Assembly (NCBI GenBank): GCA_021797825.1
Contig: JAJZZA010000012.1
Span: 1-60,453, forward strand
Origin: Bacillota bacterium
GTDB taxonomy: Bacteria > Bacillota > Sulfobacillia > Sulfobacillales > Sulfobacillaceae
Reading direction: 5' to 3'
Length of the DNA stretch: 60,453 bases
Shown: one piece after another, positions 44,017-48,925 of the stretch
Numbering within the stretch: the first letter of the stretch is position 1
Layout: each line of letters opens with the position of its first letter
Program-made: the position numbers and the translations under genes
The notes under the pieces: generated by a model
The model's database searches: none
What the model saw: the letters and a program-made list of their open reading frames with translations, nothing else
What the model was told of the DNA's origin: nothing

Positions 44017-44128
44017 TCGCTGACGGCACCCCTCCCTCGCCGCCAGCCGGTCTTTGGGCCGATTGGGGCTGGACATTTCCCAAGTGATAGGCTATGATGC
44101 TGTCAGACGGTCTATGGGGGGGCATCTC

Positions 44129-45121
44129 ATGCGCGTTCCGGTGGATCAACCGTTTTGGATTGGCGATCGCTGTTTTACTCCCGACGATCTGGCGCATATT
44201 CGGGAGACCGTGCATCGCTGCCGGAAGTTTAGCCGAGCGGAAATTGCGGCCACCTTGTGCGAGAATCTGCCGTGGAAGGCCCCCAACGGGCAACTCAAAA
44301 TGGCGGCCTGCCGCGAGTTGTTGGAGGATTTAGCCGAGCAGGGGCTCATCACGCTGCCCACCAAACGCAGCCGCAGCGGGAGCACATTGCGGCCTCAGGA
44401 GTGGGAAGGTCCGGTGGTGCCAACCCTGTCGCTGACGAGCCCATTGGCGGACGTGCGCCCGGTTACCATCGATCCCGTGCTCGCCCCGGAACGTCGGGCC
44501 TGGAATGCCACCATGCAGGCCTTTCACCCTTTGGGCTACCGTCGGCCGATCGGCGCCCACCAACGCTATTGGATCCGTCTTAAGGTGGGGGAGCAGCGCG
44601 CGATTGTGGGGGCCCTGTTGTTCGGAGCAGCCGCCAAAGCCCTCGCCGCCCGCGATGAGTGGATTGGATGGACCCCGGCCGAGCGCGCCCGCTTTCGTTG
44701 GCGGATCGTCAATAACAATCGGTTTTTACTTTTGCCAGGCATTGCCGTTCCCCATTTGGCGAGCCATGTGCTGGCCCTCGCCACCAAACGCCTCCCCGAC
44801 GACTGGAAATCCCGCTATGGGTATGCGCCCGTGCTCCTCGAGACGTTTGTCGAACCCCCTTGGACAGGCACCAGCTATCGCGCCGCTAACTGGCAGTATT
44901 TGGGCGACACGGCCGGTCGGGGCCGCCAAGACCGTGAACACGCCAGCGCCCTGTCCGTTAAAATGCTCTGGGTCTATCCGCTGACGCCCGACTGGCGAGC
45001 TCAATTGTGTAAACCCGCACCCCAACCTCCGCAGGAGGTGGAGGAGGACGATGAGGAGTTCGAAATCCCGCCGGTGGCGGAACCTGCCAAGACCCGCTGG
45101 ATAAAAACTTCCCGCTCGTAA
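44129..45121 (+). CDS. DUF4338 protein (DruA-like), stand-alone
   Basis: A 330-aa protein with the hallmark segments of DUF4338, the family of Druantia protein DruA: a RYWIRLKVGEQRAIVGALLF stretch, AARDEWIGW, IVNNNRFLLLPG, ASHVLALATKRLPDDW, VLLETFVEPPWTGTSYRAAN and LGDTAGRGRQD. The first 110 residues form a helical N-terminal domain (LCENLPWKAPNGQLKMAACREL), as in DruA proteins. The acidic C-terminal tail is unusual. No DruB-E or large helicase is nearby, so the complete defence system is absent. The ATG has GGGGGG upstream. Function is unknown. Confidence 0.85.
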   Translation: MRVPVDQPFWIGDRCFTPDDLAHIRETVHRCRKFSRAEIAATLCENLPWKAPNGQLKMAACRELLEDLAEQGLITLPTKRSRSGSTLRPQEWEGPVVPTLSLTSPLADVRPVTIDPVLAPERRAWNATMQAFHPLGYRRPIGAHQRYWIRLKVGEQRAIVGALLFGAAAKALAARDEWIGWTPAERARFRWRIVNNNRFLLLPGIAVPHLASHVLALATKRLPDDWKSRYGYAPVLLETFVEPPWTGTSYRAANWQYLGDTAGRGRQDREHASALSVKMLWVYPLTPDWRAQLCKPAPQPPQEVEEDDEEFEIPPVAEPAKTRWIKTSRS

Positions 45122-47020: not shown

Positions 47021-48925
47021 GTGGCTATGCGAACTCAACCCAAGACACGCGTGCGATTGACGGTTCCGCTGGTTCGGGAACGGGGCGTTCTCCAACCATC
47101 CTCCTGGGAGCGCGCCTTGTCGCGCGCCGCTGAACTTTTTGCCCAGGTCAAGGCCGCGCACGGCCCCAATGGACTCGGCATCTTTTCCTGTTCAAAATCC
47201 ACCAACGAACTCAATTACCTCGCGTCGAAGTTTGCCCGGGTAGTCTTTGGCACGCACAACATCGACTCATGCAATCGAACCTGACACGCTCCTTCGGTCG
47301 CGGGTCTCGCGGCCGTGTTTGGCACCGGGGCGAGCACGAGTTCCTACGAGGATTTTCACCACACCGATGTGATCCTGCTGTTCGGCTCCAACGCCGCCGA
47401 AGCGCATCCCATCATTTTTCATCACATCATGCGCGGCGTCAGAAATGGTGCCCGCCTGATTGTGGTCGATCCGCGGCGAACCCCGACTGCTTTATCCGCG
47501 CATTCCCATCTAGCCATCAATATCGGTGCCGATATTGCCGTCTTAAATGCCCTGGCGCATGTGATCATCCAAGAAGGACTGGCCAATACCGAGTTCATCA
47601 CCCGCGCGGTGCAAGGATTTGACCGGTTTCGCGACGCCGTTGCCGCCTGGACGCCGGAACGCGCGGCGGCCATAGCGGGAGTGTCCGCGGAGCTGCTCCG
47701 CGACACCGCGCGCCGCTATGCCCGGGCTGACCGCGCGATGCTGGGCTGGACCTTAGGCATCACGGAACACCATAATGCCGTGGATAACGTCTTCGCCCTT
47801 ATCAACCTCGCCCTGCTAACCGGCCACGTGGGACGGCCGGGAACGGGACTTAACCCCCTGCGGGGGCAGAACAATGTCCAAGGCGGCGGGGACATGGGCG
47901 CGCTGCCCAACCGCCTGGCGGGATTTCAGGATGTGCGGGATCCTGAGGTGCGGGCTCGATTCGAACGGGCCTGGGGGGTGCCGTTAAGCCCCCAGCCGGG
48001 TTGGAATCAGACCGGGATGTTTGCGGCCATGGGCCGGGGGGAACTGCAGGGACTCTTGGTCATTGGGGAAAACCCGCTGGCTTCGGAAGCCAACGGGAAC
48101 CACGTCCGCCAGCTGTTCGGCCGGCTTGACGCCCTGGTGGTGCAAGACATCTTTCTGACCGCCACCGCCGAGATCGCCGACGTGGTCTTGCCGGCCCGGG
48201 CATCGTTTGCCGAGAGCGACGGCACCTATACCAGCAGCGAGCGGCGCGTGCAACGGGTGCGCGCGGCCCGCCAGGCTCCGGGACAAGCGCAAGATGACCT
48301 CTGGATCGTGGCCGCGCTGGCGCGGGCGATGGGATACGACTGGGCGAGTCCCGAGCCTGAACAGGTGTTTGACGAAATGCGGCAGTTGGCCCCCAATTTC
48401 CGGGGCATGACCTACGCCCGCATCGAGCAGGAGCACGGATTGCAATGGCCCTGTCCGACCGAGGGGCACCCCGGCACCAAAACACTGCATACCCGGCTTT
48501 GGGAGCCGGTGGTCAACCCCAAGGTGGCCCTTACCCCGGTCGAATGGGAGGCCCCGGCGGAAACGCCAACCGACGCCTACCCGTTTATGCTCACCACCGG
48601 TCGCCGACTGGCATTTTATAACACCGGAGTGCAATCCAACCTGTACCCGCACCCGCATAACACCGGAGAACGGATCGAAATCCATCCCGCGGACGCCACG
48701 CGGCTAGGCCTGGCCGACGGAGAACGGGTGGCCGTGACGTCGCGCCGGGGACGCGTGGAAGTTCCGGTCCGATTTTCGGACACGGTTGCACCGGGTACGG
48801 TGTTTATGACATTTCACTTTCCTGACCAAGTCGGCACCAATCTGTTGTCCATTGATGCCTTCGACCCCGAAGCGGGCACCGCCGAATTCAAGGCGTCCGC
48901 CGTCCGCATCGAACGGATTGGCTAG
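47021..48925 (+). CDS. fdhA: Formate dehydrogenase catalytic subunit, C-terminal part, selenoprotein
   Basis: 634 codons plus stop (residues 1-634) with one in-frame TGA at codon 88 (47282-47284). It lies in CNRT-U-HAPSVAG, which matches the selenocysteine site of FDH-H (Sec followed by His). The frame is uninterrupted on both sides of it. Downstream are VDPRRTPTALSA, GRPGTGLNPLRGQNNVQGG, GALPNRLAGFQDV and the C-terminal LTTGRRLAFYNTGVQSN and TFHFPDQVGTNLLSIDAF, all typical of bis-MGD formate dehydrogenases. The protein oxidises formate (or reduces CO2). It lacks the Fe4S4 domain and iron-sulfur modules at the N-terminus; these are encoded at 50717. The GTG start has AGGGGG 9 bases upstream; ATG 47027 is an alternative. 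Confidence 0.88.
47282..47315 (+). promoter_or_regulatory. Selenocysteine UGA with SECIS-like hairpin
   Basis: After the TGA (47282-47284) come 18 bases, then the loop GGTCT (47303-47307), closed by an 8-bp stem: CGGTCGCG (47295-47302) pairs with CGCGGCCG (47308-47315), with one G-U pair. E. coli fdhF has the same UGA-to-GGUCU distance and the same loop. Bacterial SECIS elements sit inside the coding region in this way and bind SelB. Confidence 0.82.

What the first reader, a model, noticed from the sequence alone, without database searches (positions are those of the whole stretch)
44129..45121. Stand-alone DruA-like (DUF4338) protein without the Druantia genes
The protein has all the hallmark blocks of DUF4338, yet no DruB-E is nearby; neighbours are a flavoprotein and a lipoprotein. 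DruA homologues as lone genes have no established function. It carries an N-terminal helical domain and a new acidic tail. It may be a defence protein of a minimal system or a mobile-element accessory.
Basis: partly seen in the sequence, partly recalled or inferred. Interest (0 to 1): 0.6.

Follow-up and report, generated by a model that had tools for sequence, protein, structure and literature searches.

The report
Orphaned transposon gene resembling phage Mom
A lone bacterial gene first read as a phage-defence gene turns out to be the non-transposase gene of a jumping element that has lost its transposase; its protein is folded like a phage enzyme that chemically modifies DNA, and relatives of it are kept intact by selection in other species.

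Summary
44129-45121 (+) encodes a 330-aa PF14236 (DruA/DUF4338) protein with no Druantia genes beside it. It is not a Druantia remnant. Close and distant relatives sit inside insertion sequences, fused or adjacent to transposases of at least four types (IS4-like, ISAs1-type, Tn5/IS50-type, IS66). The window's own subfamily of IS (2.65 kb: druA-like gene plus DDE transposase, TIR CAGTGCTGACGCATGA, 9-bp target duplications) occurs in related genomes, and as a decayed copy elsewhere in this genome. The window copy keeps the IS-type leader and promoter but has no transposase and no recognisable TIR. Stand-alone copies recur in the family; two pairs show strong purifying selection (dN/dS 0.12 and 0.14). 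The predicted structure is a helix-turn-helix-like N-terminus plus a GNAT domain whose best PDB match is phage Mu Mom (Z 15.3). Mom Arg101, Ser114 and Tyr149 correspond to invariant or nearly invariant residues. Best reading: an IS-derived, still-maintained HTH + Mom-like acyltransferase, probably acting on DNA. Origin is well supported; catalytic activity and cellular role are inferred. The "new acidic tail" is shared with IS-borne relatives. No evidence for phage defence was found.

The parts
44129..45121 (+). stand-alone PF14236 (DruA-like) gene, 330 aa
   Evidence: ORF and Pfam match 91.3 bits; no transposase remnant nearby
44180..44362 (+). N-terminal helix-turn-helix-like DNA-binding-type domain (about residues 18-78)
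   Evidence: three helices in the model; weak best matches (Z about 5) to Z-alpha, homeodomain and winged-helix chains among others
44453..45001 (+). GNAT-fold domain, Mom-like (about residues 109-291)
   Evidence: AlphaFold2 pLDDT 86; best VIA-align match phage Mu Mom 8bv8, Z 15.3 against 12.9 for the next
44720..44722 (+). codon of Arg198, counterpart of Mom Arg101
   Evidence: invariant in 25 of 25 relatives
44762..44764 (+). codon of Ser212, probable counterpart of Mom Ser114 (Ser124 in PDB 8bv8 numbering)
   Evidence: invariant in 25 of 25; 8bv8 is titled 'inactive mutant S124A'
44876..44878 (+). codon of Tyr250, counterpart of Mom Tyr149
   Evidence: 24 of 25 Tyr; aligned by hhalign
45035..45064 (+). 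acidic tail EVEEDDEEFE (residues 303-312)
   Evidence: shared with stand-alone and IS-borne relatives
44070..44098 (+). promoter TGGACA-17-TATGAT, apparently inherited from the IS leader
   Evidence: 10 of 12 matches; the same block at a similar distance in IS copies L006/L007 and stand-alone copies L094-L096
44034..44128 (+). leader aligning with the leaders of IS-borne copies; no recognisable left TIR beyond it
   Evidence: MAFFT alignment; TIR scan with up to 3 mismatches finds none near the gene

Best explanation
The gene is the druA-like accessory gene of an insertion sequence that has lost its transposase gene and terminal repeats and survives as an ordinary chromosomal gene driven by the IS's own promoter. 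Its product is an HTH-type DNA-binding domain joined to a Mom-like GNAT acyltransferase domain. The most likely mechanism is that the HTH domain docks the protein on DNA and the GNAT domain transfers a CoA-borne (or Mom-type) group, most likely to a base in DNA as Mom does. In the IS this would mark or protect element or donor DNA, or tune the transposase. In the stand-alone form it would provide a DNA-marking activity that the host (or related IS acting in trans) keeps under selection. Shown: IS association of the subfamily, absence of transposase here, conserved promoter, purifying selection on relatives, predicted GNAT fold, conserved Mom-equivalent residues. Inferred: direction of evolution (from outgroups), catalytic activity, DNA as substrate, cellular role, and that the window copy itself is under selection.
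For: IS origin: PF14236 domain fused to an IS4-type DDE transposase in eight 95-100% identical 2.5-kb copies with CAATGGCATT inverted ends and 10-bp target repeats. Fused or adjacent to ISAs1-type, Tn5-type and IS66 transposases elsewhere. 16 of 21 independent relatives with 1 kb or more of downstream sequence have a transposase within 3 kb. Window-subfamily IS with TIR CAGTGCTGACGCATGA at both ends, 9-bp target duplications in two copies, one of them in this genome on C75. Stand-alone class: L094-L099 and others lack both TIR and transposase. The tree has IS copies as outgroups and stand-alone copies in several places. Selection: L098/L099 at the same locus, 15 synonymous to 6 non-synonymous changes, dN/dS 0.12, Fisher p 3e-6; L096/L097 0.14. 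Fold and residues. Promoter.
Against: Selection was measured on relatives, not on the window copy: its nearest relative (L094) is 69% identical and dS is saturated. The GNAT fold alone does not name a substrate, and other GNATs are not far behind Mom (Z 12.9). hhalign gives Mom only a weak match (E 0.027, probability 1.8). Stand-alone copies lie at different loci in different genera, so losses or movements were repeated; the direction (IS first, stand-alone later) rests on outgroups in a tree with several unresolved forks.
Confidence: 0.6

Rival explanations
1. A decaying IS remnant without function: the transposase was deleted and the druA-like frame is still open by chance or recency.
For: Own-genome copies on C75 and C60 are visibly decayed; single stand-alone copies L102 and L107 sit next to IS copies in the tree and L107 keeps a degenerate TIR.
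Against: The window frame is intact with promoter and ribosome-binding stretch; the Mom-equivalent residues are kept; stand-alone relatives show dN/dS near 0.12-0.14.
Confidence: 0.2
2. A trans-acting helper of related IS: the stand-alone protein still serves IS of the same subfamily (for example by binding or modifying their ends) and is itself carried about by them.
For: Related IS with intact ends exist in the family, and this genome holds a TIR-flanked copy. L114 and L115 in different genera share a 1227-bp unit at 95% identity with different flanks.
Against: Most stand-alone genes have no recognisable TIR. The L114 flanks partly match other repeats, so the unit's ends are not proven.
Confidence: 0.25
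3. A protein (or small-molecule) acetyltransferase rather than a DNA-modifying enzyme.
For: Foldseek lists many protein and polyamine acetyltransferases with E near 1e-4.
Against: VIA-align puts Mom clearly first (Z 15.3 against 12.9) and Mom's R/S/Y residues line up with invariant or near-invariant positions; PHROGs 'Mom-like DNA modification protein' is the best match in that library (E 7e-4, 21 residues); an HTH-like domain precedes it.
Confidence: 0.2
4. A single-gene anti-phage defence protein or a part of Druantia split from its partners.
For: The family name; a DruE-like helicase (1510 aa, 549 bits to PADLOC DruE1) lies on contig C152 of the same genome.
Against: PADLOC DruA model 11 bits only; no obvious defence genes beside the stand-alone copies inspected (by eye); of seven genomes with the window-type stand-alone gene only this one has a full-length DruE-like relative.
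Confidence: 0.07

Closest known systems
Druantia DruA (PF14236 / DUF4338)
   Same: Same Pfam family, over the curated cut-off.
   Different: PADLOC DruA model not significant; no DruB-E; context is IS-derived.
Phage Mu Mom (PDB 8bv8; Pfam PF25680; PHROG 1384)
   Same: Best structural match; R101, S114, D139 (as D/E), Y149 and H48 have counterparts; both encoded by transposing elements or their derivatives.
   Different: Carries an extra N-terminal HTH-like domain; Pfam Mom match 11.5 bits, below cut-off; activity untested.
IS-borne DruA-like genes (L006, L007, L104, L105, L106, L126)
   Same: 50-58% identical protein, homologous leader and, in some, the same promoter block and acidic tail.
   Different: They have TIR and an overlapping or following DDE transposase gene; the window copy has neither.
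GNAT domain 'annotated as DUF4338' fused to DndF (PMC10853773)
   Same: Independent published recognition that DUF4338 is a GNAT domain.
   Different: There it is a DndF fusion; Mom likeness, IS association and stand-alone form are not discussed in the passage read.

Membership tests
PF14236 DruA | score over Pfam's curated cut-off | tested here: met
   91.3 bits against 27
Druantia type I defence system | DruA recognised by the PADLOC system model | tested here: not met
   11.4 bits, E 0.03
Druantia type I defence system | druB, druC, druD, druE adjacent | tested here: not met
   neighbouring ORFs are NMO-like, lipoprotein, DoxX, HSP20 and formate-dehydrogenase-type genes
Druantia type I defence system | protects against phage | not testable with these tools
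   needs plaque assays
insertion sequence | terminal inverted repeats | tested here: not met
   no TIR with up to 3 mismatches near 44-45.2 kb
insertion sequence | transposase gene | tested here: not met
   no remnant found by tblastn with seven transposase queries
IS-derived gene | close relatives and outgroups inside IS, with homologous leader | tested here: met
GNAT superfamily | GNAT fold | tested here: met
   predicted model, residues 108-291; 756 chains at Z 8 or more
Mom family (PF25680) | score over Pfam's cut-off | tested here: not met
   11.5 bits against 27.1
Mom family (PF25680) | conserved Arg/Ser/Tyr positions of Mom | tested here: met
   R198, S212 invariant, Y250 24/25; which Mom residues are catalytic beyond S124 (PDB title) is from memory
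Mom family (PF25680) | modifies adenine in DNA | not testable with these tools
   needs nucleoside mass spectrometry

The most novel reading that the evidence does not exclude
The DruA domain, whose role in Druantia is unknown, is a Mom-like DNA-base acyltransferase that insertion sequences of at least four transposase types have acquired as an accessory module, and that hosts repeatedly keep as a stand-alone DNA-modifying gene after the transposase is lost; Druantia's DruA would then also be a DNA-marking enzyme.
Probability: 0.3. Interest if true: 0.75.

Novelty: new variant of a known kind. Interest (0 to 1): 0.5.

Why it matters
It moves DUF4338 genes found alone out of the defence column and into the transposon column, which matters for automatic defence annotation. 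It also gives a concrete, testable biochemical guess (Mom-like modification, with named residues) for a domain of unknown function shared by IS and by Druantia, and a case of recurrent survival of an IS accessory gene without its transposase.

Tried and rejected
Flanking TIR or transposase remnants around the window copy: none. Conserved synteny of the stand-alone gene across genera: none; only within genera g3 (one side) and g6. The L114/L115 shared 1227-bp unit as proof of self-mobility: dropped, since the L114 flanks partly match other repeats. The DruE-like helicase on C152 as partner: no co-occurrence. Solved structures by sequence: no hit. Phage records: none; plasmid records: two, one annotated DUF4338 and one annotated 'ISAs1 family transposase'. 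No paper among those found links DUF4338 to IS or to Mom; subscription journals are not covered. The N-terminal fold search gives only Z about 5, so HTH-like is a cautious label.

Full report
Observation. The ORF at 44129-45121 (+) is real and encodes 330 aa. It matches PF14236 (DruA) at 91.3 bits over residues 110-270 but the PADLOC Druantia DruA model only at 11.4 bits. The neighbours are not Druantia genes and have no PADLOC match. Three further PF14236 loci are in the same genome.

IS association. A scan of one genome per species returned 39 relatives. In an Arenicellales genome eight near-identical 2.5-kb copies carry a 774-aa ORF with PF14236 at the N-terminus and an IS4-type DDE domain at the C-terminus; the ends are CAATGGCATT/AATGCCATTG, and 10-bp direct repeats are seen by eye at three copies (L022, L023, L027), with exchanged flanks at others. 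Other relatives are fused or adjacent to ISAs1-type (DDE_Tnp_1_assoc), Tn5-type (Tnp_DNA_bind, Dimer_Tnp_Tn5) and IS66 transposases. Counting the Arenicellales copies once, 16 of 21 loci with at least 1 kb of downstream sequence have a transposase within 3 kb (the transposase queries came from these same loci, and the loci were selected by similarity to the window, so this is not an unbiased rate). A public plasmid record already calls one such region 'ISAs1 family transposase'.

The window's own subfamily. L006 and L007 (Armatimonadota) share a 2.65-kb element with TIR CAGTGCTGACGCATGA and a druA-like gene overlapping a DDE gene. Elements with the same TIR, a druA-like gene and a related transposase gene are found in related genomes (L104, L105, L106, L126). 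Nine-base target duplications flank L106 and a decayed 1.4-kb copy on contig C75 of the window's own genome. The window copy lacks both TIR and transposase. Its leader, including a TGGACA-17-TATGAT promoter at 44070-44098, aligns with IS leaders. The closest other stand-alone genes (L094-L099) show no TIR or transposase either.

History and selection. In a 35-row tree the outgroups are mostly IS copies; the stand-alone label needs at least four changes. The window gene pairs with L094 (support 86/85) near five other stand-alone genes; another stand-alone group (L101, L103, L114, L115) and two singles (L102, L107) lie inside the IS clade. Some forks are open, so the number and order of losses are uncertain. 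L098 and L099 are the same locus in two species (96.6% over 6.9 kb): 15 synonymous and 6 non-synonymous differences, dN/dS 0.12, Fisher p 3e-6. L096/L097 give 0.14. The window copy itself could not be tested in this way; against L094 dS is saturated.

Fold and mechanism. A model from a 25-row alignment has pLDDT 86 and pTM 0.78. Residues 108-291 are a GNAT fold. Among Foldseek's top chains, VIA-align puts phage Mu Mom (8bv8) first, Z 15.3, rmsd 3.0, 162 residues; the next is AAC(6')-Ib at 12.9. In the Mu record Mom reads LNR101MWL, SES114RA, QSFAD139 and VVY149QASNF; the DruA-like counterparts are NNNR198F, LAS212, ETFV[D/E]242 and Y250RAANW. hhalign aligns the last two blocks and places the serine region close to S114; the exact R101 and S114 pairing is my reading of motif order. 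R198 and S212 are invariant and Y250 is 24 of 25. 8bv8 is titled an inactive S124A mutant; with a 10-residue numbering offset this is S114, an inference. That R101, D139 and Y149 matter in Mom is from memory. The N-terminal 86 residues form three helices with weak HTH/winged-helix matches (Z about 5). Published work already calls DUF4338 a GNAT domain (PMC10853773).

Defence rival. The Druantia papers consulted here do not, in the passages read, describe lone DruA in IS. A 1510-aa DruE-like helicase is on contig C152, but of the seven genomes holding window-type stand-alone genes only this one has a full-length relative of it.

Verdict. The IS origin is well supported; a maintained stand-alone function is supported for relatives and probable for the window copy; Mom-like DNA modification is the most likely mechanism but is inferred.

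Noticed in passing
G000 contig C152, L180:2899-7431 (-): A 1510-aa DruE-like (YprA-family) helicase, 549 bits to PADLOC DruE1, with no PADLOC-recognised neighbours on its 9.7-kb contig; may be ARMADA-like or an unassigned Druantia type.
   Followed up: partly
OY282380.1 (L021, L024, L025): Target duplications of IS copies are exchanged between copies (the left repeat of one is the right repeat of another), as expected after recombination between IS copies.
   Followed up: no
L016:368-2794: An IS66 transposase with the DruA-like domain fused at its C-terminus, the reverse order of the other fusions.
   Followed up: no
L114:101-1327 and L115:2126-3352: A stand-alone druA-like gene 95% identical in two genera with different flanks; the L114 flanks partly match other repeats.
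   Followed up: partly
window 47021-47284 and 47315-48925: A molybdopterin oxidoreductase (formate-dehydrogenase-type) gene appears split into two frames; frameshift or assembly error possible.
   Followed up: no
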